NCBI GenBank assembly: GCA_948567375.1
Contig: OX419760.1
Span: 10,602,001-10,666,000, forward strand
Direction: 5' to 3'
Length of the DNA stretch: 64,000 nt
DNA from: Lunularia cruciata
Lineage: Eukaryota > Streptophyta > Marchantiopsida > Lunulariales > Lunulariaceae
Part shown: in pieces, positions 22,510 through 57,389 of the stretch
Layout: each line of letters starts with the position of its first letter
How positions within the stretch are numbered: position 1 is the first letter of the stretch
Position numbers and translations under genes: made by a program
Notes under the pieces: model-generated
What the model saw: only the letters and a program-made list of their open reading frames with translations
Databases searched by the model: none
Told to the model about the DNA's origin: nothing

Positions 22510-22927
22510 AAACCTATGGTACCCACATTTTTGTTTATTTTTTATTTTTGAAGAAGAAGTGTATAGAAGAAGTTGCATTGCACCTATATGACATCAAAAG
22601 GCAAAGAATGGTGTATGTGGGTTGTAATCTGAGGTAAAGTGACTTTGTGTCAGAAGACAAAGTACTAAGATTGGCCCTATCAACATTCAATCCAAAGTAA
22701 GGAGACTTTGGCTCAGAGATGCTCAACCCAAGGTGAGGACAGTCTAACAACTTTCCTTCGGGGTTGGACATTCAAGAAGGTACCGCACACAAAAATGGAT
22801 GGCCTTTAAGTGGGAGAAAATTGACAGTGATAGGAGCATGAAGTAGGTGTGATTTCTTAGTAGAAACTCAAAGTGAAGAAAGATAGAGAAGGCGTGCAAC
22901 TATAAGACTCGGGATAGAGACGAAGAG

Positions 22928-25336
22928 ATGACAAGTAATTTTCCATCGCCATTAAGGAGTCATCTTGAGAGAGATCATGGGAAAGGAAGTGTAGTAAGAG
23001 ATGCATTGGTGTGTCAAGAGGAAGTTAGGAGAGTTAGTCCGAGAATCAGTCGAAAGAGTAGCCACCAATCCAAAGAAGAGGAGAGTAAGATAGGAGATGG
23101 GAAGAAGAACTCACAGTGAGAAATCATGCAATTCAGAGATTAGATGTGATTGCCAAAATCAAAGTCTTGAGCAGGCTTTGAATCACATTCCCGATATGGA
23201 ATTGAAACATTAGCTTTCCAAGTTTCATGACTGAGATCATTGAGAGTGAATGTCTCAATGGGCTCGAGTGAGAAGATAAGAGAGGAAATTTGGCTTGCTG
23301 GACAGAGTTGGATTGGAGGTTAGTACTTGGAGGAGAGGCAAGTGAAGATTAGAGAGCTACATTCTTGAGGAAAGGAGAGGTAGTTGAAGAAACCCAAGAG
23401 GTGAGAGATGCCTTTCCTTCAAAGTGCATGAAGTATGGTTATAAGGTCAAGAGCTATAAGGACCCTATGAGGAGAGGCATCATAGGAGCAATGATGGCTA
23501 TCTTGGAGCTGGAGCAAACCACTAATGTGATGAAACATCAAGCGGTGTTCTTCCATAAGATGTTTTCAAGGGAACCGTTCAATTGGGTGAAGTGTTTTCA
23601 TCAATGTACAAGAGAAATGGTGTGGAACTTGTGAGACAAGTTGCCTCCACACTACATTGTGCTGTTTGCAGCCCACTTCTACTTGGAACTGAATTTGCTA
23701 AATGTGGCGGAGAGACAAAAGATGGTGTCGTACTTCCACCCCAATTTGAGAAGAGATGATGATGCGCAGGAGCAGCAATACATCTTGCAGATAAGGAGCA
23801 GTGACATGTACAACATGCAGACTGGGCAGAGCATGCAGTTGAAGGTGAACACTCCAAAGTCAAAGAAGAGGAGTCGATAGGAAGGAGAAGAAGAAGTAAC
23901 GGCAACGAGACCTTGGAAGACTAGGAAGATGAACCCAAGGAAAGACTTGGTGGTAATCGCATTGTCAGGTGAAGAATCAAAAGGCAAAGCTGAGTACAAG
24001 TCAGAAGACTCAGAGAAGGAGGAAGAACTTGAACTCACGTTGCAGAGTGGTGAAGCAAAGCAGCGAGAGTGAAGATGGAGTAGAGATGCAATTGGTACCC
24101 AAGGAGGAAAAAGAAAAGCTGGAAATGGAGGAAGAATGTAACCCGAGACCCAAAGACAAAGTTCCAAAGGAGGAGAAGAGGGTGACCATTCAGAGAGGAG
24201 TCCATTCCTGAAGGAAAGCAAAGTATGAAGCGGGACCAAGTAGGAGAAGGGAAGTGGAGAGTGGGAGTTTGGGGAGCAAAGAATCCATTCCAATAAGGCG
24301 ATTGCGGCTAAGAAAGTGAGTTTCAAGTGAAGAAGAAGCAAAGAAGGAGAAAAGCCCCCATGTTGAGGTAAATCAGAGTGAAGGAGTAGAGTATCTATGT
24401 GAGGTTGTATGCTTGTTGTTAACAAAGTTGGAGCAGAAGAAGAAAGAGATGTAGTCGAAGTGTCCAGAAGGTAAGACTATGTTGCCAGTGTTAGCAAGAT
24501 TAGAGGAAGAGAACTCAGAGTTGAAGAAGAGTATAATCTAAGGTGAGAAGGAGAGGGAGGTACTACAAGTAGATGCAATAGTACAGAATCAAGTGATTGA
24601 AAACTTAAAGGAGGTGGGAAGTAGAGAGCAAGTAATAGAGTAGAATGTCATAGCAAGGGAAAGATAGATAGCGGAGTATGAAATCTTGAAATAGCAATTT
24701 GTTGATTCATGATTAGAAATTATCCATGCTATGGCACAAGTAGCAGAGAAGGAGCAAGAGCTTGATAGAGTGATGGAGAGTGCAAAAGAGAAGAAGCAAC
24801 TCTGGCAAAGAGAGTTGACAGTGAGATATAGAGAAGAAGAAAGATTAAGGGAGCTGCTTCGCAGTCTGGAGGAGAAGATTGTTCAAAAGGAGAAGGAGAA
24901 GGAGACTATGAAAGCCAAATTCAAGGCTGAACTGGCAAAGTATAGAGAAGATTGGCTGGCATATAGAGAACGTGAGAGCAGGATGAGACTCAAGCCATTG
25001 AAGGAGATTGTCACAAAGATGAATGTGATGTTGAGTACAGAAGCCAATGTAAGAATTGAAGAAACACGATTGCACAAGTTGAAGTTGTTGGTGCAGAAGA
25101 CAAGGAGGAGAAATGCAAAGGATAAAGATTTGAATGCCTTGCTGATTAGTCTCAGAACTCATGTAGATAGGAAGATATTAGAAGTAGAAGACAATATCAC
25201 AATAAAATTAGATTTAGTAAAGTTGGAGATAGATAAACTTTGGAAGGATGTAAGAGCAAAGCCCAAAGTAGATGACATAAGAGTACAGATATCTTTGGAG
25301 TTATCATTGGAGATATTAGAGAAGAGTGGTTTGTGA
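22928..25336 (+). pseudogene. Coiled-coil protein of the ORF-bearing unit, copy 1, degenerate
   Basis: Family not recognised. Order of pieces: an N-terminal region (23,365-23,634) with YGYKVKSYKDPMRRGIIGAM and HQAVFFHKMFSREPFNWVKC; after a TGA, same frame, PPHYIVLFAAHFYLELNLL and a basic stretch KSKKRSR ending at 23,880; an acidic, Glu/Lys-rich and frame-broken middle; and a long heptad-rich coiled coil (24,731-25,336, 201 codons, AQVAEKEQELDRVMESAKEK to SLEILEKSGL). Each piece has a counterpart in the same order at 42,577-44,912. At least two stops and several frameshifts make it non-functional. The FNWVKCFHQ...FAAHFYLELN part could be a globular domain; no cellular function can be inferred. 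Confidence 0.7.
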
Positions 25337-25512
25337 GATAAAGAGTCAGAAAGGTCACCTATGATGGGAATTGTAGATCAAGAAGAAGAAGTGTTAGAAT
25401 TGGTAGAAGAATTAGTAGTTGTGAAACTCAAGGATAGAGTAGTGTGTGAAGTTACTTTGGGGTTAAAAGCCGAGGAAGCGGTAGACATTGGATTGGAGTA
25501 GTAATAGTTTTG

Positions 25513-26045
25513 AGATTTGAAGAGGTAGATATGAAGAGGTGCGTTGTCATTTTGAATGTAAGGTAGGAAAAGTTGTTATAGAACGGTATAGTTATTAGCA
25601 ACTGTCTATTGTTTGACTATTTAAAGGTGGCATTCATAGTCATATGTTATTCAATACTCATAATTTCTGAAAATAGATAAAGAAAAGTGCTTTGAAGCAG
25701 TGTTCATTGCTTGAGCTTAATTCTGAGTATCAACATTGAGTGTGTTTTTGTGAGAGTGTGGAGAATTTTGATTGTGAGTGTGTGAAGATTTGAAGAGGCA
25801 AATATAAAGAGGTGCATTATCATTTCAAAGCTGCAAGTAGGAAAATTTGTTGTAGAATAGTATAGTTATTAGCAACTGTGGATTGTTTCACTATTTAAAG
25901 GTGGGATTTGTAGTCATATGTTGTTCAATACTCATAATTTCTGAAAATAGATAAAGCAGAGTGTTGTGAATTAGTGCTCATCACTTGAGCTTAATTCCAA
26001 GTATCAACAAGTGTGTATTTGTGAGTGTGTGGAGAATTTTGAAGT
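25513..26045 (+). promoter_or_regulatory. Duplicated TATA-type promoter region of the ORF-bearing unit
   Basis: Two tandem units of about 273 bp (25,513-25,785 and 25,786-26,045) both begin 'agatttgaagagg', both contain 'gttattagcaactgt..attgttt.actatttaaagg' and 'ataatttctgaaaatagataaag'. The TATTTAAA boxes lie at 25,618 and 25,892. The copy at 42,014 has only one such unit (TATTTAAG at 45,033). In an LTR this would be the U3/R promoter, with about 675 bp from box to end. Confidence 0.6.
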
Positions 26046-26572
26046 GCAAGTCAATGTGTTTGTTGGATGTTGGATTTTGTAGCCTTGATTTTCATTTTTG
26101 TGTTTGATATTGAATGAAGTGCAATCTGAGCAATGCCTTGATAGATCTGAGAAGAATTGTAGTATTGGTAGCATTCTGCATTTGTGAGTGTAGCATAGTG
26201 TTGATATGAAGCAATTTTGATTGAGGAAGTTGTGCCTTCAGTGAAGGGGTAGAACACAATTCTGAGGCAAAGTCGTTTTGCAATGAAGTGCCATTTTCAA
26301 GAGAGACTGAATCATCACAATCAAGATTGTTTGGAAAGATTTGATGGAGTTGTGATTATGTGTTACAAATTTTTGTGACAAGACTATGAGTCAATGCTTG
26401 TTACTCTCTTCTGGGTGTAGTTTCTACCTGAGAGATTAAAGACAAAATCAAGAAGGACTACATTGTGATATTTGACTTTGTATTTAACCAATTCTGACTA
26501 GTATCTTTGCAAGAACAAACTTTACTTACTTGATTACCGCAAAAGTGATATTTACTGGGTTGTCACAAAACC

Positions 26573-37690: not shown

Positions 37691-38191
37691 TTACTCTATG
37701 TGTGATAAGAAATGTCGTAGCATGGCTGTAGTAATGCTTCCTATAAACTCTCCTCCTCTATCAAAAACAAACTCCAAATGGCATCCAAATCTAGTGATAA
37801 TGCGTTCATAAAGAAATCTACCAACTTCATCTTCATTCTTGTCCCTCAATGGTCTAGCCTCAACCCACTTGGTAAGATAATCAGTAACTACCACAATATA
37901 CTGATTGTTTTTTGGGGTTCTATTGAGAGGACCTAAAAAATCAATTCCCCACTTCTCAAAAGGTCCTAGCAATGGAATTGATCCAAGTGATAGAGTGGAT
38001 GTAGACTTTCTAGCAAAAGCTTGACAAACATGACAAGTTTTGCAATAATCAAAACAATCCTTGAAAATTCCTCTCCAATAGTAACCTGCATCTAGAATCT
38101 TGAAAGCAGTCACCTTTCCTACAAAGTGTCCTCCACACACTAAACCTTCATGAGAATCCTTTATGAGTAAGATAGACACTTCCTTACCCAT
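37691..38191 (-). pseudogene. Integrase, truncated
   Basis: Open frame of 166 codons. Zinc-binding HHCC: DSHEG, GGHF, and CKTCHVC. Core: KWGIDFLGPLNRTPKNNQYI with the first catalytic Asp, TDYLTKWVEA, and FVFDRGGEF with the second Asp (family form is usually SDRGTHF-like). The frame ends at HFLSHIE, upstream of the block that would bring the catalytic Glu, where the other element begins. It overlaps the stop of the RT-RNase H frame by one base in a shifted frame, as after a frameshift. Confidence 0.88.
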
Positions 38192-39342
38192 TACTCTTTG
38201 AAGTAGACCATCTCCTCCTTGGTGAAAAAGAATACCTCCACCATTGTGTAAGGTCTAGATCTTGCTGCAAGGGCCTTCCTCTCCCTCACATGCATCCCTT
38301 CTGGATAGTTACCTCTTGTTACAAAATCCACAATCTCCTTGTACTCCATTGGAACCTCTTGAGTGACTGAGATTGTCATGAGCTCCTCATCCGGGAAGGA
38401 ATCATCCACTGGCTCATCTCCATCATGATCATAGGCTCTAGATAACAAATCAGCATTTGCATGTTTCTTTCCTGGCCTATCCTCAATGGTGTAGTCATAC
38501 TCAAACAAGAGTATCATCCACCTTGCTAGTCTCCCTTCAACATTAGGCTTGTTAAAGATGTACTTCAAAGCCTTGTGATCCGTGACAATGGTGGCTTTCC
38601 CTCCAATCAAGTAGTGTCTAAACTTCTTGAGACCAAAGATCACTACCAACCCTTCTCTATCCGTGACAGAGTAATTCTTTTCTGCTGAAACCATCTGCCT
38701 ACTAGCATAAGCTATTGGATGATCATGCCCATCTTGGTCTAATTGACTAAGAGTGCATCCTATAGCTACATTAGAAGCATCGGTGTAGAGGATGAAAGGC
38801 TTACTCCAATCAGGTTCAGCAAGAATTGGAGCTACAACAAGGGATTGCTTGAGCTCCTCAAAAGCTTTGAGAGCCTCATTGTCCTCCAAAATCACCATGT
38901 AATCTACACACTTCTTCTTGGAGATGGTCAATGCATAAGCCTTGTTGGAAAATGAGAAGATGAACCTCCTATAGTATCCAACCATCCCCAAGAATTGGCA
39001 TAACTTGGTCAAGCTTGAAGGGAATAGAAGGTTTGAGATTTTCCTCACCTTCTCAGGATCAACTGCTATTCCATCCTTGGAGATGATGTGCCCCAAAAGT
39101 AGACCTTCTTCACATCCAAAAATGCACTTCTCTAGGTTGAGTGATGCATTTGCCTCATCCAAGCATTGCAAGACCTTGATTAGGTGCTCAAAGTGCTCCT
39201 CCTTGCTCCCATAGACACAAAAGTGATCAATGAAGTCTCTCACAAATTTCCCAATGAAAGGTTCAAATACCTTGTTCATGAACCGTTGGAATGTGGCTGG
39301 AGCATTGCAAAGCCCAAAAGGCATGACCTTGAAAGCGTAAGT
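38191..39342 (-). pseudogene. Reverse transcriptase palm to RNase H, long open frame with altered active site
   Basis: 377 codons are open from MPFGLCNAPATFQRFMNKVF onward. The RT catalytic block reads RDFIDHFCVYG: the second Asp of the DD pair is His, so polymerase activity should be lost. The rest is well kept: LGHIISKDGIAVDPEKV, QFLGMVGYYRRFI, and RNase H with FILYTDASNVAIG, EKNYSVTDREGL, TIVTDHKAL (three acidic catalytic positions present), ending HANADLLSRAYDHDGDEPVD. Upstream, a TGA (39,342-39,340) follows TTPW. The 70 codons after RNase H (EELMTISVTQEVPMEYKEIV) form the linker to integrase. Confidence 0.88.
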
Positions 39343-40157
39343 TCACCAAGGTGTGGTGAATGTGGTGAGTTGTTGATGCTCTGGTGCAATCTTGATTTGG
39401 TTATATCCACTATAACCATCTCCAAAACTATACCTCTCATGACCTGCAACCTCCTCCAAGACCTCATCAATGAATGGCAATGGGTAGTAGTCATTCTTGG
39501 TAACAAAATTGAGCTTCTTGTAATCCACACATACTCGAAGCTGCCATTTTTTTTCTTCACAATCACAATTGGAGATACCCATTCTGAATTCTCCACCTCA
39601 AAGATAAATCCAGCCTCCTTGAGCTTATCAATCTCCTCCTTCACAATCAAAGATATTGGTGGGCTAATGCGACATTGCTTTTGGCAGATTGGTCTTGCAT
39701 GTGACTCCACCTCTATCTTGTGCTCCTCCAAGGTGACTTCCTTCAAATCCTTGTAACTAAAAGCAAACACATGGATGAACTTGCAAAAAATCTCCTCAAA
39801 TCTCACCTTCTCCTCCTTGGTAACATTTGGACCATACTTGAGGGTAGATAACCTTCTCTCTACTTCCTCAAGTGTCAATGGTGATTTATCTGGCTCCTTC
39901 AAAACCTTTGGCTTAGGTGAAAAATCCATAGCACACAAGGGATACACATCTGAATCCAATTCAGATTCATCCTCCTCCATGCTTGTGTCCACACCTAAAT
40001 CTCCTTCTTTTGAATTTGATTCCAAATAATCAGAAGATGGTGTATCTAAATGTGAAGTGTTGGTGGTGTTAGTCATAGGAACTGTGACTCTATGGTTTGA
40101 TGGCCCAATCCTCAAGTACCCTTTGTGCCATCTATTTGTTGTGCATGATGCTCTCAA
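39343..40157 (-). pseudogene. Pol linker and reverse transcriptase N-terminal part
   Basis: From 40,157 the frame covers an acidic linker (MEEDESELDSDVYPLCAMDF) and the RT start: LKEVTLEEHKIEVESHARPI, ISPPISLIVKEEIDKLKEAG, FIFEVENSEWVSPIVIVKKK. A run of T (39,546-39,555, 'cattttttttcttc') marks a frameshift, after which another frame (39,582-39,343) continues with VCVDYKKLNFVTKNDYYPLP, FIDEVLEEVAGHERYSFGDG and YSGYNQIKIAPEHQQLTTFT. Only this slippage-prone run and the following stop break an otherwise complete RT. Confidence 0.85.
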
Positions 40158-40169
40158 CCATGGCCTCCC

Positions 40170-40420
40170 AAGAAGTCATAGCTTGAATCTTTCAAGACTT
40201 GGAAAGTCATGAGATTTTGAACTCTCGTAATTGAAACTACCACTTTATCCATCACCCCTATTGGTCAAACTTGTTGCTTATTTGCCATGCTCACCACAAA
40301 TGTTGAAGGTCTTGAGGGTATCATACCCAACTTCTTCATCAACCTTTCTGACATGGCATTCACTGCTGATCCTCCATCAACAAGTGCATCCTTGATGTTG
40401 TACCATTCACTCTCACATCA
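40170..40420 (-). pseudogene. Aspartic protease (DGGS type)
   Basis: After a frameshift near 40,400, the minus strand reads DALVDGGSAVNAMSERLMKK and then LGMIPSRPSTFVVSMANKQQ. This is the active-site loop of plant gypsy proteases of the D-G-G-S/A-x-V-N form. A stop follows KQQV; FLGRPWLRAS near 40,165 is the conserved C-terminal block. It would mature the Gag-Pol protein. Confidence 0.75.
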
Positions 40421-41880
40421 ATTTTGGAGGCATATTCACAAGCCTCCCATGGTGGTGGCTTGGCATCCACCACCCCCATTGATACTAGAGCTTTTGCCTT
40501 CTTCTTCCTCTTGCTCCTTGTAGAACTCAAACCACCTCTAAGCTCCTTTCTCAAGGTAGGGTTCAAAGCAATCAATTGGCCCATTGTGATGTTAGCCTTG
40601 TGACTACCAACATCCTCCAACACATTGTAGTTCCATTGTTGCTTTGAAATCAAGAAATCCTCCATCCCCAACTTCTTCCTTGGAGTCTTTGTTGTCGATG
40701 GTATTGAGGTGCAAGTGCTCCTAGTAGACATAGAAGTATCCTTGCTTGGAGTAAATCCTTGAGAAGAGTGAACATCCTCTACAAAATGAGCTCTCTTCTT
40801 CTCTTGTGCCAAAAGCTCCAAATTAAGACCCTTGAAGTTTGAGCACTCTCTCTTCTCATACTTGCTCTCCACCACATCTATGGATGTTATCCCCTTACCT
40901 ATGTTTGTATTAGGAGCCACTTGGGTTTCACTACCTCCTACTTTCTCTCTATTAGCTCCCTCATAACCCCTTCCTCCATAGTAAGTGGAATTTGGGCAAT
41001 TCCTTTGGATATGGCCTCTTCCTCCACAACCAAAAAAATTTCTATCATTGAAATTGTTGGCTGGTTGGCCTCCTCTATATGGATAGTTTCCATAACTCCT
41101 AGGCCCTCTCCCTACATTTTGATCCACCTCTCTCTTTTCCCATAGTTGCACCACATTGATCTTGAGATCCGCAAGTTGTTCTATGATGGTTTGAAGTGGA
41201 TCCTTTGGTGGAGGTGCAAGAATTGGAGCAACTCCTACTTGTGGTGCAATCCTTGCCACCAAAGTATCAGAAGTTCCACCATACTTGTAACCTTGAGGAG
41301 GATGCACAACCTCCTTCACCACTAAATTACTCTCATTCTCTTCCAAACTCTCCTCCATACGAATTGCGATCTTGATAGCTTCAACCTTGGAAGAAGGTTT
41401 CTCATATCTCACCTTACTTCTTATTTGTGGTCTCAATCCTCCCACAAAATTCTTGGTGAGTGTGGCCCCTATGCCAATCATAGTAGTCTCCACATCATCT
41501 CCACCCTTCCTCAACACTATGCAAAATCTGGACTCTAACTTTTCCACTCTTTCCACATAGACTCTCACTTTCTCTCCATCTCCTTGTTTGAGAAAGGTAA
41601 CCTCACTCATCAATCTCTCATAACTCTCATCTGGGAGAAAGTTCTCAATGAGTGTCAAACTCTCCCAAGACTCTTCTTCCCCATCTCTCCTCTTTCTTTC
41701 TTTTGGTATTCTGACTCATACCATGTAAGTGTTGCATCCTCAAAGAAATCTGGTAAAAATGAGGCCCACTCATTCTTCCTCCTCTCATTGTTTCCTATGT
41801 AAGCTCTCTTGAAGTCTCTCACAAAGGCCTCCACATCTTCTCCATCCTTGCCAAAGAAACCGGAAGTTTCCCTATCTTAA
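40360..41880 (-). pseudogene. Gag (capsid, zinc knuckle, Pro/Thr-rich tail)
   Basis: Capsid homology begins near 41,876: FFGKDGEDVEAFVRDFKRAY, NEWASFLPDFFEDATLTWYE, typical of the retrotransposon Gag fold. After one frameshift near 41,680 the main frame runs 41,658-40,360 (432 codons): LPDESYERLMSEVTFLKQGD, FVGGLRPQIRSKVRYEKPSS, then a spacer and a zinc knuckle FFGCGGRGHIQRNCP in which the first Cys of CX2CX4HX4C is Phe. The tail has TRSTCTSIPSTTKTPRKKLG and leads into protease (WEACEYASKIDVRVNG). Otherwise intact for a long stretch. Confidence 0.85.
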
Positions 41881-42576
41881 CCTCTCACTATCTTTCTTTC
41901 TCTCAATTTTTTTGCTCTTTTCTTTTCTCTCACTCTATAACTAATAGAGTATGTACATGACTAACACCATTTGAGAGTAATCCACCCTAGGGAGCACAAA
42001 AGGCTCAGGTTGCTGTGGTACCCACATTTTTTTGTTTTTCTATGGTTAGTCGTGTTTAAGAGATGAAGTAAGCACTGAAAGTCGAATTGCAGACAAAGAA
42101 TGGACGGAAGTAACTTCAGAGGAAATCTGAAGAAGATGACATTGGATCCGATGATTGAGGTACTCAGAAGAGAAGTATGCCGGAAAAAGTCCAAAGATCA
42201 CCATCTTTGGGTTGGAAGACGCAGGAGAGACGAAGACTGTTTAACAACCTTTGTACGTGGCAAGAAAGTACATTTCAAGAAATGGCGGGGGCAGAAGAAG
42301 CATGTCTTGACAGTGACCAGGAGTTGCATGCAGAAGAGAGAAATTTGTAGCTGAAATCGACTAAAGAATGACTGCAATTTGGGGTAATATAAAATTGCAA
42401 CTGTGCAGGGAAAAGTTGAATACACCAAGTAAATTTCCAATTCCTTTGAGTAGTCGCCCTGCAGTAATGCGTGTCCGGAAGCCCATCGAGAGTGAGATTT
42501 TCTGAAACCCTGAGGGAGTTAGAGTATCTCGTCCAGGAGAGAGTCTCATCTACATCATAGAACGAGAGAACAGATC

Positions 42577-44912
42577 ATGGCGAAGAAGGTGGCCAATGCG
42601 CTGGCGGTGCGAGGTTTTGCAATCCGAAAGGTAGATGTAGTAGCTAGAATCAAAGTCTTGATTAGACTTTGTATTACTTTTTTAGCATGGAACTGGAATT
42701 TCAATTTCTCGGGAGTGATGGTAGAGATTGTTGCTAGTAATTGTGAGGAGGGTCCCGAGGTGGAAGGGAAGAGAGGCAATCCGGCTCGATGGACTGAGTC
42801 GGATTGGAAGTTAGTATTGGGAAGAGAGCAAGAGAACCAACGAGGATCACCTTCTATTGGAAGTATGATGCTGCAGAGGAGACGTCGGAGATCCACAATT
42901 TGTTCTTTGCTCCAAGAACCACAAATAGCTACAAGGTGGAGTCCTATCGGGATCCGATCCAAAGAAGTATTGTGGGGGCGATGATGGCCATGTTCAAGCC
43001 AGAATGAACCACCTATGTGAACATGCAGCAAGTTGTCTTCTTCCATCAGATGTTTGCAGGAGCTCAAGTGAATTGGGCAAAATGCTTTCACCACCGAACG
43101 AGGCAGATGGTGGTGAATTGGCGAATGGGCTCGCCACCATATTATTTTGCACCATTTGCAGCCCACTTCTACTTCAGACTAAACTTACTAACCAAAGAAG
43201 AGTGTCATCGTATGGTGTCTCACATGCATCTTGATTCACGACGGGAAGCAGACAAGGAAGAGCGCCAATATATGCTGCATCTTCAAGAAAATGACAAATA
43301 CTTTGCGAGGACTGGACAGTGGAAAGTCAAAGAAATTACCAACCTGAAGACAAAGAAACGTGGCAAACCCAAAGAAGTAAGGTCACCTCCCACGCAAAGG
43401 AAGACTCAGCGGCTGATGTTGAAGATGGCGAAGATCGTAAAAGAGGCATCATGGGGATCGGAGTCTGGGGAAGAGACTGAGTTGCAAGAGGAGGAATCGG
43501 AAGAAGAGGAGCTCACATTGAAAAGTGAGGAGTCTGGGAGCGATAGTGATGGGAAACCAAAGGTCCAACAATCGGTAGCAATAAGTGAGGCTTGTCAGGC
43601 AATGTTGGTGAACAAGTCAAGACTAGAAGAGAAAGCAAAGAATCTCGCGGGGCCAAGTTCAAGAGGCCAAGACAAAGAAAGTGCCGAAACGATGAAGATC
43701 CAAAGATTGCAACTTTGGATGAAGGAGCCAATGATATAGGAGAAGACTCCAGACGAAGATGGTGATGAAGAGGAAGAAAAATTTGGTGGGATATCCTATT
43801 TGACAAAGGTGGTCATACCATTGATGGAGCTGTTGAAGGAGCATCGGAGAGTAATTCCCCAAGATTGCAGGAAGGGGAGGAACAAATTGCAGATGGTAAA
43901 GTATCTGTTGAGTGAAGTGAAGGAGTTGTAGGAGCAACAAGTCCGAAGAAGTGAGGAAGTGGAAGGACTTTGGAGGGAGGAAGGCTTGATGAAGAAAACG
44001 CTGACCATGCTACAAGAAAGCTGCGAAGTAAAAGAAAAAGAATTGCAAAAGCGAGCCGGAGAATTCAAGGAACAAGCGATGTGGCCCAACAAGATGAAGG
44101 AAGAAGTGAGTGATGTGCGCATCAAGAACATTCATTTGAAGGCGACAAACATCGTAATGGAGCAAGAGTTGGACAGTTTGAAGAAGAGTGCAGCAGCAAA
44201 AGATCAAGCATGGCAGAGAGAGTTGGCAGCCAGGCAAGAAGAAGAAGAGCGATTGCGAGAACTTGTCAGGAGCACGGAACAACAGAGCGTGCAGTATGCA
44301 GAGGAGAAGAAGATGCTTGCTGCAGAATACAAAGACGAGTTGAAGATGTATCGTGAGGAGTTGAAGGTGGAGCACTCTCGAGGATGTGCATCAAAATTAG
44401 TAGAGGAAGTAGTAGGAAAGTTAAGAGCAATCTTAAGCATGGAGGCTGAAGGGAGATTGGAGGAAGCTTGTCTACATGAGTTGAAATTACTTGTGCAGGA
44501 AACTTGGAAGAGAAAGGCCAAGGATGTGGACATGAACACCTTATTGATTCGATTGAAGGAACGTGTAGATAGGAAAATGTTAGATGTAGAGAACAATGTT
44601 AGTCTTAGACTAGATTTAGTCAACTTGGAGTTAGAGAAGATTTGGGATAGTGTGACAGGGGAGACAAAACCCGATGTCGTAGAAGTAGGAATACAAGTGT
44701 CATCAGACTTGATGATCGACACTTTAGAGAAGAGTGGGTCAGGAGATAAGGATGTAGATGGATTACCCATGAGCTCAATTGTAGATTATAGTGTAGAAGT
44801 AGTAGAATTAGTGAAGGAATTGGTAGAATCAGCTATACCCAAAGAAGGTGAAGTAATAAGAAGATCATCGAGTTTGGAAGCCAATGATGAGGTAGACATC
44901 GGATCAGGATAA
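42577..44912 (+). pseudogene. Coiled-coil protein of the ORF-bearing unit, copy 2, nearly complete
   Basis: Starts AKKVANALAVRGFAIRKVDV at 42,577; one frameshift near 42,810 leads into a single frame kept to 44,912 with only three stops (43,005, 43,737, 43,929), i.e. about 780 codons originally. Parts: N-terminal region ending ARWTESDWKLVLG; a probable globular domain with REPTRITFYWKYDAAEETSE, RSIVGAMMAMF, QQVVFFHQMFAGAQVNWAKC and PPYYFAPFAAHFYFRLNLL; a basic stretch TKKRGKPKEV; an acidic stretch EEESEEEELTLKSEESGSD; and about 320 residues of coiled coil (43,959-44,912, AARQEEEERLRELVRSTEQQ, LEEACLHELKLLVQETWKRK, RVDRKMLDVENNVSLRLDLV). Family unknown to me. Shared order with 22,928-25,336 in a unit at a different locus argues that the frame is a genuine part of the mobile unit. 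Confidence 0.78.
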
Positions 44913-45032
44913 AAGTCAATTTTGAGATAGGAAGAGGAAAATATGAAGAGATAGATTGACACTTGGGATCTGCAAGTAGGAAAAGATGTTAGGAAGCGGT
45001 GCTTAGGTAGGCAAGTCTACCGTTTGCTTCAG

Positions 45033-45040
45033 TATTTAAG
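45033..45040 (+). promoter_or_regulatory. TATA-like box of the ORF-bearing unit, copy 2
   Basis: TATTTAAG in a context shared with copy 1 (TATTTAAA at 25,618 and 25,892): followed by 'ttattcagtattcacatttctgaa.atagataaagca'. It lies downstream of the coiled-coil frame, about 675 bp before the unit's end, the place of a U3/R promoter if the unit is an LTR. Confidence 0.5.
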
Positions 45041-45712
45041 TGCAGCAATCGCAGGACAATGTTATTCAGTATTCACATTTCTGAAGATAGATAAAGCAAA
45101 GTGCTGCTCTCAGTACTCGTCGCTTGAGCTTAATTCCGATTGTCAATTTTGTGTTTGTAGTTGTGAGTGTGTGGAGCATTCCGAAGAGCAAGTCAGTGTG
45201 TATGTGGATGTTGGAATCTGCAGCCTTGATTTTCATTTTGTGTGTTTGATCTTGAGTGAAGTGCATCGGAGCAATGCCTTGACAGATCTGAGAGGAATTG
45301 TAGTGTTGGTAGTATTCTGCATTCGTGAATGCAACACAAAGTTGATGTGAAGCAATTTTGATTGAGGAAGTTGTGCCTTCAATGGAGGGGTGGAACACAA
45401 TTTTGAGTGAAATCGTTCTTTGCAGTGAAGTGCCGTCTTTGGGAGAATCTGAATCATCACACTAAAGAATTGTTTGGACAGAATTTGCTATGATATGATT
45501 ATGTGTGTATTCGTGACAAGTTGTCAAAATTGTGAGCTTGTTACTCTCTTCTGGGTGTAGTTTCTACCTGAGAGATTAAAGAAGAAACCAAGAAGAACTG
45601 CAATTGTGACTTTTGACTTTATATTTGACCAATTCCCGATAGTATCTCTATGGGAACGAACTTTACTTACCTGATTACCGCAAAGTGATATTTTCCGGGT
45701 TGTCACAGTTGC

Positions 45713-47138: not shown

Positions 47139-47143
47139 AAAAT

Positions 47144-47832
47144 GTGAGCCGGCCTGTCTCTTACTCAGGATGAACCTTTGATGGCTATTATTGTAACGCA
47201 CCATGGACTAAGAAGGCAAGGAACCCCAACTCCATCATACTCCTCCAAAGCTAACACTCCAAGACTCAAGACATTGCTCACTAGAGAACTCAATGAGAGA
47301 AAGATAGTTGCAAATGAAAGGATGATGAGTACCTCCTCACCCCTTGTTTATATACTTGTGAAATAGTTACGCACCAAAGTTACTAATTACCACAGTAACT
47401 TAAGTTACTAGACTAAAAGTCAAGCTAAGTCAAAAAGTAGAAAGAAATATCCATTCATATGGGCATATTCCACTAGCATGTGATCTTATCTTGACCCAAC
47501 CACTAAGTCAAGGATTCCTTCACATGGGCTATCCTTGGACTATAGAAGAATCCAAACAAAAAGGCTTGCGGGCCCAAGATTTCTCAACTCTTTCCTCAAA
47601 GCCAAACACCTAGGAATAATACCAAGTCAACACACTAGAATCCAAAATAGTGGTGCTCATCTTTTCCACTTCCTCTAAAGTAAGGTCCCCTCTATCTTAG
47701 CTATGACTAACTTTAGCTAATCATGACTAATGTAGAACCATCCTTTATCTCTATATAAATAATATATCTCAAGTACTTGTAATACCAAGCTTAATATCAC
47801 AATACCACACACATGCACAAATGGGTGTTAGA
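47144..47832 (-). repeat. 5' LTR of the minus-strand gypsy element
   Basis: About 689 bp; on the minus strand it runs from (TC)TAACACCCATTTGTGC to GCCGGCTCAC and is colinear with the plus-oriented LTRs 48,552-49,223 and 56,110-56,800 and the fragment at 1-155. The TATATAAA seen at 56,590 in the sister LTR corresponds to 'tttatatacttgtg' here. The first G of the TG start is lost. Confidence 0.85.
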
Positions 47833-48551
47833 GATCCTACTTGGTGCAACATGGTAACCTTGATCATAAAGTTTTTCTAATCCTCACGGACAACATACAT
47901 GAACAATGGGCAAGCAAATTTCTTCCAAGTATTGCACAAAAACCCATAGATTGGATGAAGATGTTCTATCATTGACCCAAGAACGCATGGACCAATTGCA
48001 AAAGGAGGACCTACTTCCCTCTCACCCTCCGTGTTACATTTTTATATTAGGATGAGACTACTACAAAATAAGAGGAAGCTTTCCTTGGCATATTACTATC
48101 TCTTGAGATATTATATGCGCCAACCAAGATATGAAAGAGAGATCAAGAAGTTGAAGGATGTCTTCATCAAATACAAGAAGAAGGGTATGTGGGTACCCAT
48201 AGACAAGGCTGCTAAAGAATGAACCAGCAAATGAAAGGTGGTCTTGACTCTACCAAAGAGCAAGAAGAGACCAAATCCTCAAGTAATTGACTCTTTGGAG
48301 GAGGAAGCTTCCAAGTTGATAACAAATAGTGATTGGGAAGTGATGGAGGAGCTGAGCAAGATTCACAAAATGCCCTAGTGAAGTTATGGTGCTTGTAGAA
48401 TGAGAGGGAACTTTTGCCGATTGTGGAATTAGCACCCCTAGAGCAAGAGAACTTCTTCTCCAAGGTAGAGGTGTCTTCCAACAATGCAAGAGGAAGAGAT
48501 GATGCAAGAATGAAGGTTCAATTTACTCTGGCAACATTGTTAGATTTGGAT

Positions 48552-49223
48552 TGTAACACCTATTTGTGCATGTATGTGCTATTATGATATATAAATTGAG
48601 ATTATAAGTACTATTATCTATATAGAGATGAAAGATGGTTCTAGATTAGTCGTGATTAGCTAAAGTTAGTCATAGTTAAGATAGAGGGAACCTTACTTTA
48701 GAGAAGGTGGAAAAGATGAGTACTACCATCTTAGATTCTAGTGAATTGCGTTGGTATTATTCCCAAGTGTTTGGCTTTGAGGAAAGAGTTGAGATCTCTT
48801 GGACCCACAAGCCTTTTTGCTTCAGATTTTTCTATAGTCCAAGGAAAGCCTATGTGAAAGAATCTTTGACTTAGTGGTTGGTTCAACATAAGACCATATG
48901 CTTAGGAGAATATTCCCATGAGTATGGATATTCCTTTAGAATTTAGACTTTATTAATTTTTTAGCTTAATAACTTGAGTTACTCTAGTAATCAATAACTT
49001 TGGTGCGTAACTATTTCACAAGTATATAAACTAAGGGTGTGGAGATATTCATCATCATTTCATTTGCAAGTATCTCTCTCTCTTTGAGTTCTCTAGTGAG
49101 CAATAGTTTGAGTTTTGGAGAGATAGCCTTGGAGGAGTATGGGTTCCTTGCCTTCTTAGTCCATGGTGTGCTACCATAATAGCCATCAGAGGTTCATCTT
49201 GGGTGAGAGACAAGTCAGCTCAC
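48552..49223 (+). repeat. Solo LTR, plus orientation
   Basis: 672 bp, TGTAACACCTATTTGTGC to GTCAGCTCAC, same family as 47,144-47,832 but opposite orientation and without a primer-binding site behind it. It interrupts a protein-like frame that reads ATLLDLD before and continues after it. Flanks (TGGAT / AAGAT) only partly agree as a target duplication. Confidence 0.8.
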
Positions 49224-49796
49224 AAGATGTGCCTAGCCAAGTTAGCCTTGACCAAAGCAACACTGTGGTGGGTGACAAGGAGGAGGCCTTGATATCATGA
49301 TTGTAGAAGAAGACTCCTCCCCCAACACCAATACACAAAGATGGGACAATTTAGGTTCCAACTATCCCTCAAGGAGAGAATCACCAAGTGGCAACTCCAC
49401 TTTAGGAACCAATGCTTGACATTGTCTTACCTTCACCATCCTAGGTGAGCAAAGGGAGACTTTTGAGTGACAAGAAAGGTAAGGGACCAAGGAGATATAT
49501 GTCCTTGGACCTAGATAGGATCATTGTGGAATTTAGCTCTCCTCCTAAAATTATTAGAACCAAGGAGATGGTGGTAAGTTACTCTAGACCCAAAGTAGGC
49601 TAGCTCATTGGGAGCACAAAGAGTACAAAGTACCCCAATGACCCCCACCCCAACTTGAGATCCTCTATAAGCAAGTGGAGCTATGTAGGCCCTACCACAA
49701 ATGGTACCATAGCCCAAGCCAAGTACACCGGTTTTCATGGAAGAGCTCTTCATGTACCCACTTAACCATAATCTATTGTCGTCTTAGGTTGTCTAT

Positions 49797-50795
49797 ATGT
49801 TGGAACCAATATTGAAGATCCTAGAGGAAGTCGTCCTTGCCTACCAAGAAATTGATCCTGTGGTGATGGACTGCAAGAGCTTGATTGATTTCTTGCACTT
49901 TCACATTCAGAAGGCCGTATGGGAAAAACAAGCAGTGGAGAGGGAGTTGGTCAAAGCCAACAACCATATTTTGCACTTGGAGACCCAATTCATGGAAATG
50001 AAAGGGTATGGTGCACATGAATCACTATACATTCTGAAAACTACAAGACTTGGATGCATGAAAATGACACCATGCATATAGAGCACAAGGTAGAATTATG
50101 GAGCATCAAGGCAGACCTTGCAATGATAAGGTAGGGTTTACCCAATGAGAGAAGGCCTTTACGGACTACAAGTCTGCACAAGAGGAGAGTATGGGGGGAA
50201 AAGGAGTGGGAGATGGCCAAAATGAAGGAGGAGATAGAAGGCTTGAGGTAGTGGGTTACCCAAATAGACTCCAACTTAACAACTATCAAGGGTAGATCCA
50301 AGCAGTGAGTGGAAGAGATGAAGAAAAAGCATACCAAAAAAGTTAATTGCTATGGACAAGGAGGTATCATCCTTGAAAAAGGAGCTAGATGGTCTTTGGA
50401 AGGAGAAGGTCATAGAAGAGCAATCTCTTTATGCCACCTTGGAGATCTTCAAGATGCATATCAAGGAGTTGTCCATGATTGTGACCAATGATGAAGACAA
50501 AACCTACATTCCCCAAGTACAAGTCAGATAAGAGGTGGAAATGGAGTTGCAATCCATCCATGATATTTTGGATGAGGAATGAAAGAGATTCCTTATAGTC
50601 ATGGAAGATGTTACCAATAGACTAAAGAACCAAGTGGAGTTGGCTATTACAACCCAAGCTCACTAGGCTAAGTTGTGAGAGCTGAAGTCAGAGATAAATG
50701 CATCAGAGGCCAAGACTTACTCCACTTGCCAACAATTGACCAAGTTGGCAGAGAAGTTGCACAAGCATGGTGATGCCAATTTTGAAAGTGCTTAA
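49797..50795 (+). pseudogene. Coiled-coil protein remains
   Basis: From 49,797: PILKILEEVVLAYQEIDPVV, KSLIDFLHFHIQKAVWEKQA and KANNHILHLETQFMEMKG are open; further pieces in changing frames read EMAKMKEEIEGLR, MKKKHTKKVNCYGQGG, YATLEIFKMHIKELSMIV, EVEMELQSIHDILDEE and KLAEKLHKHGDANFESA up to 50,795. Repeated stops. The heptad pattern and Glu/Lys richness resemble the coiled-coil part of the units at 22,515 and 42,014, without clear residue identity. Confidence 0.45.
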
Positions 50796-52084
50796 TCAAT
50801 ACCCACCATGAATTGGAGGAACACAAAAAACATATTAAGGAGTTATTTTGGAGGTGTAAAGATAACGGAAGGTCATGAAAGTAGATCAGGATGGACTAAA
50901 CTTATACAATTGTATAGTCTTGCACCATCAAGAGGTGGTCATCACAAAATGACCATCAGGTTGCCACTTCATCATGATGGGAACTTCATTTTGATGAGGA
51001 ATTCATCATGATGGGGAGTTCATTTTGTTGGAAGGTCTCCACATAATGACATTTATATGAATTTTTTGAGCAATTAAGGCTCTAAAAATTAATTTGATTC
51101 TTTTGTAATATCTTATCATCAAGACCACTCTCCTAATGTGTACCGAGAGTCATAAGAATGGTAGAATGTACAGTAAGTGCCTCTTTGCAAGTGGTGCCAC
51201 CATAGTTTTCAATCTCTAACAACCAATTAGGTAGAATAATGTTAGTCTTAATTCATAGTTATGGGACCATGACATCACACAACCATGGATGCACCCCATC
51301 TTGTTGTATTAGAGAGTATAATGGAAGTTAACCTGACTTAATATAGGTTCAGTCAGCATAGATTGGAGCTCCATCTCATACTTGTTTGTTCAAACTTGTG
51401 AATGTGAAAATTGCTTGTGAATGTGATTGCTTGTGGGTTTGCAAATTTGACTCTATTGAGGAGACAATGCCTAAGGACCTCTTAGATCTTAAGTGTATTA
51501 ATGTCACTATGTTGTATGTTTTGTGATTGCTAAGTCGAGCAGTGGTAAGAAACTTGTAGTTGGAACACAACTATTAAGGTGCGGGAGGGTAATCAAACTT
51601 GAAAGTTCAAAAGGATTATGATGCATTTAGATTTGTGATGTTTGTGATTGTCATAAAGTATCATGCATAATGAAAAACTCAAGGTATCACAAACCCATAG
51701 TATAGTGGTGAGGAGTGCCTTCTGGAAAGGATAGAATGCTCTGATTGGCACTTTGGTGTGCACTATATAGGTAACTGCAAGGGACATACCCTCAAGTCCA
51801 ATGACCAATATGAAAACCTAAATCATCACCTTCAAGAGCTCATGTAGTGAGATATCTTTTGTGAACATGATTTGGTGGTTTTATTTTGCTATAGTATGCC
51901 ATAGAAGAAAACCGTACTCTCTTCTAGAAATTGTCTTGCCCAAGAGTTTAGAAAAGTAATAATAGCCAACTTGTGACAAAGTGACACTTTCTCTTCCTTT
52001 CTAACCAATTCCAAGCCATGTCCTTATGGGAATGATATGTTCTTGCCAATTATAATATAAGTACATCAACATTGGGTTGTCATA

Positions 52085-55000
52085 GGGTTCTATTGAGAAG
52101 ACCTACAAAGTCAATTCCTACTTATCAAAAGATCATGGTAATGGAATTGATCTAAGAGGTGGAGTAGAGGTAGACTTCCTAGCAAAAGCTTGACAAATAT
52201 TACAAGTTTTGCAATAATCAAGAAAATCCTTGAACATTCCACTCCAATGATAATCTACATCTAGAATCTTGAAGGTAGTCACCTTTCTTACAAAGTAACC
52301 CTCACACACCAAACCATGATGAAACTCCTTCATGAGTAGGATATATTCCTCTTTACCCATTTCTCTTTGAAGTAGAGCATCTTCTCCTTAATGAAAAATA
52401 ATGTCCTTCACCATTATGTCAAGTCTAGATCTTGCTGCAAGGGCCTTCCATCTTCCTAGCATGCATCACATCAAGATAGTTACCTCTTGTAAAAAATTCC
52501 ACAATCTCCTTATACTCCATTGGAACCTCTTGAGTGATTAAGATTATTATGAGCTCCTCATCCAAGAAGAAATTATTGACTACCTCATCTCCATCATGAT
52601 CATAGGCCCTAGATAAAAAATCAACATTTGTATGTTTCTTTCTTGGCCCATCTTTAATTGTGTAATCATACTCAAACAAGAGTTTCATCTACCTTGCTAA
52701 CCTTCTTCCCACATTAGGCTTGTTGAAGATATATTTCAAAGCCTTGTGATCCATGAAAATGGTGGCTTTCCCTCCAATCAAGTAGTGTTGAAACTTTTTG
52801 GGACCAAAAACCACTACCAACCCTTCACTTTCCATGATTGAATAATTCCTCTTTGTTGAGACAATCTATCTACTAGCATAAGCTATTGGATGATCATGCA
52901 CATCTTGGTCTAATTGACTAAGAGTGCATTCTATAGCTACATTAGAAGCATCAATGTAAAGGATGAAAGGCTTACTCCAATCGCGTTTAGTAAGAATTGA
53001 AGCCATAACAAGGGATTGCTTGAGCTTCTCAAAAGCTTTGAGACTCTCCCTTGTCCTCAAAATCTCTATGTATTCTATCCATTTCTTCATGTAAATAGCC
53101 AATGCATAAGCCTTGTTGGAAAATGAGAAGATGAATCTCCTATAGTACCTAAAAATTCCTAAGAATTGGTGTAACTTTGTCAAGCTTAAAGGGAATGGAA
53201 GCTTTAAGATTTTCCTCATCTTTCTAGGATCCATTGCTATTCCATCCTTGGATCTGATACGCCCCAAATTAAACCTTCTTCAAAACCATATGCACTTCTT
53301 TGGGTTGAGTGATGCATTTGTTTCATCCAAGCATTGCAAAACCTTGATTAAGTGCTAAAAGTGCTCTTTCTTGCTCCCATAAACACAAAAATCATCAAAT
53401 CTCTCACAAATTTCCCAATGAAAGGTTCACACACCTTGTTCATGAACCTTCAAAATGTAGGTTAGAGCACAAAACCAAAAAGGCATGACTTTGAAAGCAT
53501 AAGATCTCCAAGTTGTGGTGAATTGTTGATGCTCTTGTGCAATCTTGGTTTGGTTGTAGCCACTATAACCATCTCTAAAAATTTATCTCTCATGACTCAC
53601 AACCTCCTCTAAGATCTTATCAATAAATGTGAAGGGATAGTACTTCTTGGTGGCAAGATTGAGTTTTTGGTAATCCACATATATCAAGAGTTTGCCATTT
53701 TTCTTTCTCACAATCACAATTAGAGACACCCATTCTAAATTCTCCACATCAAAGCTGAACTTTTCCTCCTTGAGCTTATCCATCTACTCCTTAATAACCA
53801 AAGCTGTAAGTGGGCTAATATGATATTTTTTTTGGCAAATAGGTCTTGCATGTGACTCCAATTCTATTTGGTGCTCCTTGAAAGTGACTACTTTGAGATC
53901 CTTGTAATTGAAACCAAACATATGAATGTACTTGCATAAAACCTCTTCACATCTTAACTTCTCCTCCTTGGTAACATTGGGACCATACTTAAGGGTAGAT
54001 AATCTATTCTATACCTCCTCAGTGGTAAATATTGATTTATCAAGATCCTTCAAAACCTTTGGCTTAGGCATAAATTCCATAGCACACAAGGGATGCACAT
54101 CTAAATTAGATTCAAATTCATTCTCATTTGGAGAGGTCTCTTCCTCCATGCTAGTGTTCACACTTGAAGTTGCTTTGTCTTAATCTGATTCCCAATAATA
54201 AAAAGATGGTGTATCTAAATGTGAGGTATGGTTGGTATTGGTTGTTGGAACTATAACCAAATGGTTTGATGGCCCAATTCTCAAGTACTCTTTGTGTGAT
54301 ACTCAAATAAATTCCATTATTTGAGAAACTCTCAACCATGGCCTCCCAAATAGCAAATCATAACTCGTATCCTTCAAGACTTGGAAAGTCATAAGATTTT
54401 GAACTCCCATAACCTATATTATCACCTTGTCTATCACACCCACTGGTCAAGCTTGTTGCTTGTTTCTCCTGCTCATTACAAATGTTGAAGGTGTAGAGGG
54501 TATCATGCACAACTTCTTCATCAACTTCTTTGACATGTGATTCATTGTAGATCCTCTATCAACAAGTGTTCATTGGTATTATGACCATTCACCCTCACAT
54601 CAATCTTAGAGGTGTACTCACAAGCCTCCTATGGTGCTAGTTTTTCATCCATCACTCCCATTGATATCAAAGCCTTTGCTTTCTTCTTTCTCTTGCTTCT
54701 TGAAGAACTCAAGCCACCCTTGAAATCATCCTCAAGGTAGGATTTAAAGTAATCAATTGACCCACCATGATGTTGGGCTTGTGACTACCAACATCTGCCA
54801 ACATATTGTAGCCCGATTGTTCCTTTGACATCACAAAATCATTCATCCTCAACTTCTTCCTTGGAGTCTTTGTTGATGGTGTTGAACTCGTAGTACAAGT
54901 ACTCCTTGTAGACATTGGACTATCTTTGCTAAGAGTGAATTCTTGAGAAGAATGTATACCATCTGCAAAATGGTTTCTCTTCTTCTCTTGTGCCAAAAAC

Positions 55001-55285
55001 TCCAAGTTAAGATCTTTGGAATTTGAGCATTCTCTCTTCTCATACTTGCTCTCCACCTATATTTATGGATGTTATCTCCTTACCTCTATTTTTCATAGGA
55101 GGAACTTGGACTTCACCACTTCTCCTTCTCTTTATTTTCCCCCTCATAACTCCTTCTTCCATGGTACATGGAATTTGAGCAACTCCTTTGGATGTGACAT
55201 CTACGTCCACAACCAGAAAAAATTCTATCATTGAATTTCTAGTTGTTTGCCTCCTTTATATGGATCTTTCCTATAACCCCTAGGC
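52085..55285 (-). mobile_element. Second copy of the minus-strand gypsy element, older and truncated at both ends
   Basis: Colinear with 37,915-41,100: it begins (right to left) in the zinc-knuckle region of Gag and ends inside integrase at the DFLGPLN-equivalent. Pieces: Gag tail 55,056-54,709 (ESKYEKRECSNSKDLNLEFL, TKTPRKKLRMNDFV), protease region near 54,600-54,480, RT 53,783-53,583 (NLEWVSLIVIVRKKNGKLLI, VDYQKLNLATKKYYPFTF), RT/RNase H 53,267-52,866 (QFLGIFRYYRRFIFSFSNKA, FILYIDASNVAIECTLSQ), RNase H end 52,688-52,425 and integrase zinc part 52,360-52,133 (YCKTCNICQ). More stops than the first copy. The first RNase H catalytic Asp is kept (YIDAS), but many frames are broken. Confidence 0.88.
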
Positions 55286-57160: not shown

Positions 57161-57389
57161 AGACAGTGAGGAGTTTTGGAAGATCAGTAGGGTCTGAGCA
57201 GGAGAGAATGCAAGTAAGTTTCCCGTAGGAATGGAGGAGTGCAATCTTGGATAGGGGAAGAGTGAATTTTTGAGTTGGACAGGTGGTCTGAGCAGGAGAG
57301 AAGGCAAGGAATTTTCCCTCAGTAATGGAGTGCAAGCTTGGACAGGAGAAGAGACAAAAGGGCTGGCAGGAAGTTTTTCGGGAATTGAG

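What the first reader, a model, noticed from the sequence alone, without database searches (positions are those of the whole stretch)
42009..45712. A 3.7-kb solo-LTR-like unit that carries its own long coiled-coil ORF
The unit has TG...CA ends (TGTGGTACCC...GGGTTGTCACA), a perfect 5-bp target duplication (GTTGC) and sits cleanly inside another retrotransposon, so it integrated as an LTR-type element. Yet it shows no pair of internal LTRs, no primer-binding site and no pol; it holds one reading frame of about 780 codons with a globular N-part, an acidic stretch and 320 residues of coiled coil. A TATTTAAG box lies after the ORF, 675 bp from the end, as expected for U3/R. If the unit is an LTR, the ORF sits in U3, an arrangement known from some retroviruses (an accessory gene overlapping the 3' LTR) but not one I know in plant gypsy elements. 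I cannot name the protein family.
Basis: partly seen in the sequence, partly recalled or inferred. Interest (0 to 1): 0.9.

Follow-up and report, generated by a model that had tools for sequence, protein, structure and literature searches.

The report
Retrotransposon LTR carrying its own gene
An abundant plant jumping element carries an extra protein-coding gene inside its end repeats; selection preserved that protein while the element was active, so leftover end repeats are also (now broken) copies of a gene.

Summary
The 3.7-kb unit (window 42014-45707, target duplication GTTGC) is a solo LTR of a Ty3/gypsy retrotransposon. Three of three unit pairs examined in the same genome flank gag-RT-integrase, with a tRNA-Asp-type primer site after the 5' LTR and a polypurine tract before the 3' LTR. 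So the ~780-codon ORF lies in U3. In the window it is broken (one frameshift, three stops); the longest open run in 34 aligned copies is 440 codons. It was nevertheless a working gene: between subfamilies A and A2 net dN/dS is 0.11 (N-domain 0.03), against 0.44-0.45 between LTRs of one insertion and 1.3-1.8 in wrong frames; gag/pol pieces give raw 0.18-0.27. A second family (22515-26567) and a third, older one (~47840-52084; N-domain 25% identical, E 9e-16) share the layout. No Pfam, PDB or database relative was accepted. Most likely it is a trans-acting accessory protein. My seven literature searches listed no plant element with a gene inside its LTR. Function, expression and structure are untested.

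The parts
42009..42013 (.). target site duplication GTTGC, left
42014..45707 (+). unit A: solo LTR, 3694 bp, TGTGG...TCACA
   Evidence: LTR pairs around gag-pol elsewhere
45708..45712 (.). target site duplication GTTGC, right
42388..42394 (+). TATAAAA box 189 nt before the ATG: candidate U3-internal promoter of the LTR gene
   Evidence: TATAAAA in 23 of 29 A-lineage copies; TATAAG at the aligned place in 4 of 5 B copies; function inferred
42577..44912 (+). LTR-encoded ORF (~778 codons), broken in this copy by one frameshift and three stops
   Evidence: coding constraint
42577..43286 (+). N-terminal domain, the most constrained part (net dN/dS 0.03 between subfamilies A and A2); globular by inference
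43287..43796 (+). acidic, variable linker
43797..44909 (+). E/K/R/Q-rich, G/P-poor C-terminal part, coiled-coil-like
   Evidence: only weak heptad periodicity in three natural fragments
45033..45040 (+). TATTTAAG box: presumed promoter of the genomic RNA, U3/R boundary just downstream
   Evidence: TATTTAA in 31 of 34 copies
45041..45707 (+). R/U5 part, the best conserved DNA of the LTR between families (81.6% with B over 45059-45707)
22515..26567 (+). unit B: solo LTR of a second family, same layout, ORF decayed; duplication AAACC on both sides; tandem duplication of the promoter region that three other B copies lack
47840..52084 (+). unit E: remnant of a third, far diverged LTR family with the same ORF (5' end lost; a 677-bp LTR-like repeat lies inside at 48548-49224); ends GGGTTGTCATA. 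51477-52084 is joined to it only by likeness of its tail to A's R/U5

Best explanation
Unit A is a solo LTR of an abundant Ty3/gypsy element whose U3 carries a sense-strand accessory gene (shown). In the full element the order is U3[gene]-R-U5-PBS-gag-pol-PPT-U3[gene]-R-U5 (shown, on separate pieces; the R/U5 border is inferred). The gene lies between PPT and R, so reverse transcription copies it into both LTRs, and LTR-LTR recombination leaves it behind in solo LTRs (follows from the established mechanism). The protein was under purifying selection about as strong as on gag-pol while the families were active, and its N-domain stronger (shown between A and A2). I infer that it is a trans-acting, self-associating accessory protein: a conserved binding domain on a coiled coil, which helps the element's RNA or pre-integration complex or counters silencing. 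I infer that it is made from a short mRNA started at the TATAAAA box in U3 and ended at the poly(A) site of the same LTR, so that one LTR is a complete gene. Translation from a spliced genomic transcript through the 3' U3 is the alternative.
For: LTR pairs with PBS, PPT, gag, RT, RNase H and integrase between them: L002/L001, L003-L005, L022/L021; the gag match is below Pfam's cut-off (Ty3_capsid 20.8 against 29.1 bits). In the first 20 of 40 listed 5'-end hits: 11 solo units with an exact 5-bp duplication (window A included), 2 with one mismatch, 4 right after a PPT, 2 right before a PBS, 1 unresolved. Net dN/dS A vs A2: ORF 0.11, N-domain 0.03; frames +1/+2: 1.32/1.79. Neutral yardstick, two LTRs of one insertion: raw 0.44 and 0.45. 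Raw LTR-ORF ratio for L001 vs L021 0.17, beside raw 0.18-0.27 for five gag/pol pieces of the same two elements. ATG in 26 of 29 A-lineage copies, in a context (ATCATGGC) that suits plants by recall. Same layout in families B and E. U3 TATA box at the same place in A and B.
Against: All 34 aligned copies are broken: at least 3 in-frame stops each, longest open run 440 codons. No transcript or protein data. No relative of known function. Controls are not all clean: A vs B in frame +1 gives 0.70, and non-coding stretches, where net dS is small, scatter widely (R/U5 A vs A2: 0.23, 5.17, 0.65 in three frames; 5' U3: 1.58 for A-A2, 0.40 for A-A3). Within subfamily A the raw ratio is 0.29, so part of the neutral yardstick is low. 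The U3 TATA box lies where A and B align poorly (p-distance 0.51), so its match may be chance. Family E copies show no clear codon-position bias, so E adds homology but no proof of coding. Coiled coil rests on composition and weak periodicity. Structure prediction never ran.
Confidence: 0.75

Rival explanations
1. The ORF is a passenger: a host or foreign gene fragment captured into an LTR and carried along without use.
For: All 34 aligned copies are broken; no known function; capture by plant LTR elements is described (PMC7264820, part 1 read). No search for a host copy outside LTRs was possible beyond the 40 best places.
Against: Constraint between subfamilies (net dN/dS 0.11, N-domain 0.03) far below the 0.44-0.45 of LTR pairs; the same gene in three divergent families. 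Post-insertion decay explains the broken copies: 108 of 183 stop events are single C-to-T or G-to-A steps from CAG, CGA or TGG.
Confidence: 0.05
2. The protein is made only from a spliced or read-through genomic RNA whose 3' end includes the 3' LTR's U3, as MMTV Sag is thought to be (recalled); the copies in 5' and solo LTRs are silent by-products.
For: Position directly after pol: in L001 the integrase ORF ends 374 nt before the 3' LTR. Retroviral precedent (recalled). Spliced accessory mRNA in another LTR element, Cer1 (PMC10309623, abstract and section 6 read).
Against: A TATA box inside U3 at the same place in A and B suggests a separate start. No splice-site analysis was made.
Confidence: 0.35
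3. The unit is not an LTR but an independent non-autonomous element that merely looks like one and is mobilised in trans.
For: 15 of 40 units sampled stand alone with a 5-bp duplication of at most one mismatch (13 of 20 in the first sample, 2 of 20 in the second).
Against: Three same-orientation pairs with PBS, PPT and gag-pol between them; the two LTRs of both pairs that are in the tree are sisters.
Confidence: 0.02
4. The LTR gene is a displaced member of the Tat/Retand accessory-ORF family (Transposase_28 / Transposase_32 proteins), which in flowering plants lies between pol and the 3' LTR; a shift of the polypurine tract to a place upstream put it inside the LTR.
For: An N-part plus long coiled coil recalls those proteins (recalled). 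One of 12 members matches PF20167 at E 0.035 over 49 residues. tRNA-Asp-type PBS (by recall) and no chromodomain match in the INT ORF.
Against: 14.4 bits against a cut-off of 45, and Mab-21_C scores as well (E 0.013). Family search of the genome with PF20167 found nothing at E<=0.001, though its control rang nowhere either. The Retand ORFs described are antisense; this one is sense.
Confidence: 0.3

Closest known systems
Retroviral accessory genes overlapping the 3' LTR (MMTV sag, lentiviral nef, foamy-virus bel genes; recalled, not looked up)
   Same: sense ORF in U3, downstream of pol/env, duplicated into both LTRs by reverse transcription
   Different: Ty3/gypsy plant element; the whole ~780-codon ORF lies inside U3; 374 nt between INT ORF and 3' LTR in L001 leave no room for env; no protein relation found
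Retand/Tat antisense ORF with Transposase_28 (PMC11963269, passages seen)
   Same: conserved extra ORF after pol in plant gypsy elements, suspected DNA-binding or regulatory role
   Different: antisense and in the internal region; here sense and inside the LTR; no accepted sequence match
Sense env-like / eORF-3'F genes of Athila and SIRE (PMC7264820 parts 1-2 of 3 read; PMC6317226 passages)
   Same: sense ORF in the position after pol
   Different: described between pol and the 3' LTR, not in the LTR; no clear transmembrane stretch here
Retrosat2 ORF0 (PMC3485330, passages)
   Same: gypsy element with >3-kb LTRs and an orphan extra ORF
   Different: ORF0 is upstream of gag-pol
Cer1 CERV (PMC10309623, abstract and section 6)
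   Same: accessory protein of an LTR retrotransposon; a model for function (genomic RNA export)
   Different: animal element, spliced mRNA; no sequence relation tested

Membership tests
LTR of a Ty3/gypsy retrotransposon | two like units in one orientation flanking gag-pol | tested here: met
   3 of 3 pairs examined; gag by a match below Pfam's cut-off
LTR of a Ty3/gypsy retrotransposon | PBS after the 5' LTR, PPT before the 3' LTR | tested here: met
   tRNA-Asp type by recall, the tRNA gene search got no answer
LTR of a Ty3/gypsy retrotransposon | order RT-RNase H-integrase | tested here: met
   Pfam RVT_1, RT_RNaseH, rve in that order in L001
LTR of a Ty3/gypsy retrotransposon | TG...CA ends and 5-bp target duplication | tested here: met
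Retroviral-type U3 accessory gene (works like) | conserved sense ORF inside U3 under coding constraint | tested here: met
Retroviral-type U3 accessory gene (works like) | expressed from element RNA | not testable with these tools
   no RNA data
Tat/Retand accessory-ORF protein (PF04195 / PF20167) | profile match above the curated cut-off | tested here: not met
   best 14.4 bits against 45 for PF20167, PF04195 not listed
Tat lineage | second (archaeal-type) RNase H domain; RT tree placement | not tested
   no tree made
env-like gene | transmembrane segments | tested here: inconclusive
   best 19-residue hydropathy 1.76 in the N-domain of L010, with charged residues in it; 0.66-1.45 in three other fragments

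The most novel reading that the evidence does not exclude
Each LTR is a complete gene: its own promoter at the 5' end of U3, a 780-codon ORF, and the poly(A) site in R/U5. Solo LTRs (15 of 40 units sampled here) are then dispersed helper genes that can outlive their elements and, while intact, supply a trans-acting protein (for example against silencing or for RNA export) to the whole lineage. The gene is an ancient, lineage-defining feature of this plant gypsy group, swapped between families by recombination.
Probability: 0.35. Interest if true: 0.88.

Novelty: new variant of a known kind. Interest (0 to 1): 0.77.

Why it matters
LTRs are treated as regulatory DNA, and coding genes inside them are known mainly from a few vertebrate retroviruses (recalled). 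A long-conserved gene inside the LTR of a plant gypsy lineage would mean that solo LTRs, usually counted as dead scars, can start out as protein genes, and that a search for extra ORFs between the LTRs misses them. It also gives a route by which an accessory gene is copied twice per insertion and kept after the element is lost. The constraint on the N-domain (net dN/dS 0.03) marks an unknown but important interaction that can now be sought.

Tried and rejected
Independent non-LTR element: rejected by the LTR pairs. Frame kept by chance: rejected by wrong-frame and LTR-pair controls. Coding extension upstream of ATG 42577 (open in L010 from unit position 352): one frame of the stretch 42365-42576, the one open in L010, has net ratios 0.38, 0.22, 0.30 and 0.43 over 69 codons; too weak to claim. 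The 309-aa frame at 60216 as a relative: by eye the gag-like frame of another element, no search run. The 677-bp repeat at 48548 as a fourth LTR-gene family: the listed genome hits stop at its start; the gene-like stretch beside it belongs to family E. PF20167 as a family name: not accepted. Protein databases: nothing accepted (the 8000 candidates sharing most words scored, none E<=0.001; 6358 candidates, none E<=0.1). Viral contigs: 83 stretches matched a pattern, none a relative. Structure prediction: never started, queue full. Dating in years: not attempted, no rate for this plant.
Full report
What is there. Unit A spans 42014-45707 with ends TGTGGTACCC and GGGTTGTCACA and the duplication GTTGC on both sides. 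A second unit, B, spans 22515-26567 with the duplication AAACC. A and B are 81.6% identical in the last 650 bp and about 40-70% in 100-column steps over the ORF. The ORF of A runs from ATG 42577 to the stop at 44910-44912, but it has one frameshift and three stops. A lies beside a minus-strand RT-RNase H (38191-39324).

It is an LTR. The window lies in a 566-Mb genome of 74 contigs. With the first 587 nt of A as query there were 2182 first-look candidates, of which 40 were scored (89-100% identical); with the last 649 nt 6563 candidates (40 scored); with B's N-domain region 7554 (40 scored). First-look numbers are not copy counts. I fetched the first 20 of the 40 rows (19 plus the window). Of these 20 units, 11 have an exact 5-bp duplication, 2 have one mismatch, 4 follow a polypurine tract (AGGGAGGGGGTA or a near match), 2 precede a primer site (TGG-GCC--TGCCGGGGA), and 1 is unresolved. 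Of 20 of the 40 rows, 4 follow a PPT and 3 precede a PBS (one of each read by eye), 1 has an exact duplication, 1 has one mismatch, and 11 are truncated, chimeric or unclassified. So 15 of 40 are solo by this test. Three same-orientation pairs enclose gag, RT-RNase H and integrase: C1 41.85 Mb, C12 56.50 Mb and C2 13.68 Mb. Gag rests on a match below Pfam's cut-off. The PBS looks like the tRNA-Asp type, by recall; the check got no answer. In L001 the integrase ORF ends 374 nt before the 3' LTR, so no env-like space is left: the next long frame downstream is the one inside the LTR. Of five B copies fetched (of 40 listed), two have an exact duplication, one has one mismatch, and two lack one or both ends.

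The gene was under selection. I aligned 34 units (29 of the A lineage, 5 of B). Net divergence between subfamilies A (22 copies) and A2 (3 copies) is dS 0.549 and dN 0.058 for the ORF (ratio 0.11), and dS 0.673 and dN 0.020 for the N-domain (0.03). The wrong frames give 1.32 and 1.79. A against A3 (2 copies) gives 0.17 (wrong frames 1.30, 1.28). Between A and B the net ratio is 0.17 (N-domain 0.12), with dS saturated; the wrong frames give 0.70 and 1.45. Non-coding controls are noisy because their net dS is small: R/U5, A against A2, 0.23, 5.17 and 0.65 in the three frames; 5' U3 1.58, 0.40 and 0.48 for A-A2, A-A3 and A-B. A neutral yardstick is the two LTRs of one insertion: raw 0.44 and 0.45, below 1 presumably because transitions dominate and stops are left out; raw ratios within subfamilies are 0.29 (A), 0.42 (A2) and 0.40 (B). 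Five gag and pol pieces of the elements of L001 and L021 give raw 0.18-0.27 at dS 0.27-0.37 (wrong frames 0.49-1.54), and the LTR ORF of the same two gives 0.17 at dS 0.80. So the LTR gene is held about as tightly as gag-pol. Its larger dS suggests that its alleles are older than the pol they travel with, which points to recombination of the U3 module. Six loci carry the ORF tail and R/U5 of A joined at one point (A position 44669) to another upstream sequence, a visible recombinant family. R/U5 differs little between A and A2 (net 0.005-0.04 in 200-nt steps).

Decay after insertion. None of the 34 copies is open: 3-16 in-frame stops each, longest open run 440 codons. Of 183 stop events, 108 are CAG>TAG, CGA>TGA, TGG>TAG or TGG>TGA, which fits deamination of methylated cytosine (inference). 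27 further events are listed as CAA against TGA, probably columns in which CAA and CGA both occur.

How old and how wide. A weak match in the window (E 2e-4) led to a third family, E. In locus L047 the N-domain is 25% identical over 208 columns (E 9e-16), and the two copies fetched have GGTACCAC near their start. In the window a unit ends with GGGTTGTCATA at 52084; its tail aligns to A's R/U5 with score 36, against a maximum of 24.5 in 200 shuffles and 24.0 for the reversed sequence. The three E copies compared show little or no codon-position bias; they are old and prove homology only. So the window holds three solo or remnant LTRs with this gene.

The protein. A conserved N-domain of about 235 residues, an acidic variable linker, then a long E/K/R/Q-rich, G/P-poor stretch with weak heptad periodicity in places. 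No clear transmembrane segment. No Pfam match above cut-off, no PDB match at E<=1 for the N-domain of L010, no database relative. The only lead is PF20167 Transposase_32, E 0.035 for one of 12 members, no better than Mab-21_C.

How it probably works. Shown: gene between PPT and R, hence in both LTRs. Inferred: an mRNA from the TATAAAA box 189 nt before the ATG (23 of 29 A-lineage copies; TATAAG in 4 of 5 B copies) to the poly(A) site in the same LTR; a self-associating protein acting in trans. Rivals are given above. Which step of the cycle it serves cannot be told from sequence; nuclear RNA export as in Cer1 CERV (PMC10309623, abstract and one background section read) and anti-silencing are the candidates I would test first.

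What is known. The reviews and surveys I saw place extra ORFs of plant elements between the LTRs: PMC7264820 (parts 1 and 2 of 3 read), PMC6317226, PMC11963269 and PMC3485330 (passages). My seven full-text searches (listings seen) in the open-licence library listed no plant element with a gene inside the LTR; subscription papers are not covered. Retroviral examples are recalled. The plant is unnamed; genome size, chromosome-sized contigs of 60-85 Mb and gypsy abundance would suit a liverwort such as Lunularia (PMC9985172, passages), a guess only.

Noticed in passing
44669 (A) and L023, L025, L026, L031, L037, L038: A recombinant LTR family: all six share A's ORF tail and R/U5 from one fixed breakpoint, joined to a different upstream sequence.
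   Followed up: partly
25467-26042: Unit B has a tandem duplication of its promoter region (TATTTAA twice); three other B copies (L041, L042, L045) lack it.
   Followed up: partly
47143-47838 (-), 48548-49224 (+), 56105-56801 (+): Three copies of a short (~0.68 kb) LTR-like family with ends near TGTAACACC...CTCACA; by eye the minus copy is followed by a PBS-like site and may be the 5' LTR of the element in which unit A sits.
   Followed up: partly
37915-41104 and 52085-55285: Two minus-strand regions 81.6% identical, the first with RT-RNase H; the first also shows, by eye, the uninterrupted target site of the LTR remnant that ends at 52084.
   Followed up: partly
G000 C8:41.1-48.1 Mb and 64.36-64.48 Mb: Relatives of the family-E stretch cluster on one chromosome (16 of 41 listed rows), perhaps by local duplication.
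   Followed up: no
57159-58288: Array of ~90-bp diverged tandem repeats.
   Followed up: no
8946-10484: A 512-codon open frame, by eye low-complexity and arginine/serine/proline-rich; not studied.
   Followed up: no
42365-42576: In L010 the frame stays open upstream of the conserved ATG; a weak codon signal there leaves the true start open.
   Followed up: partly
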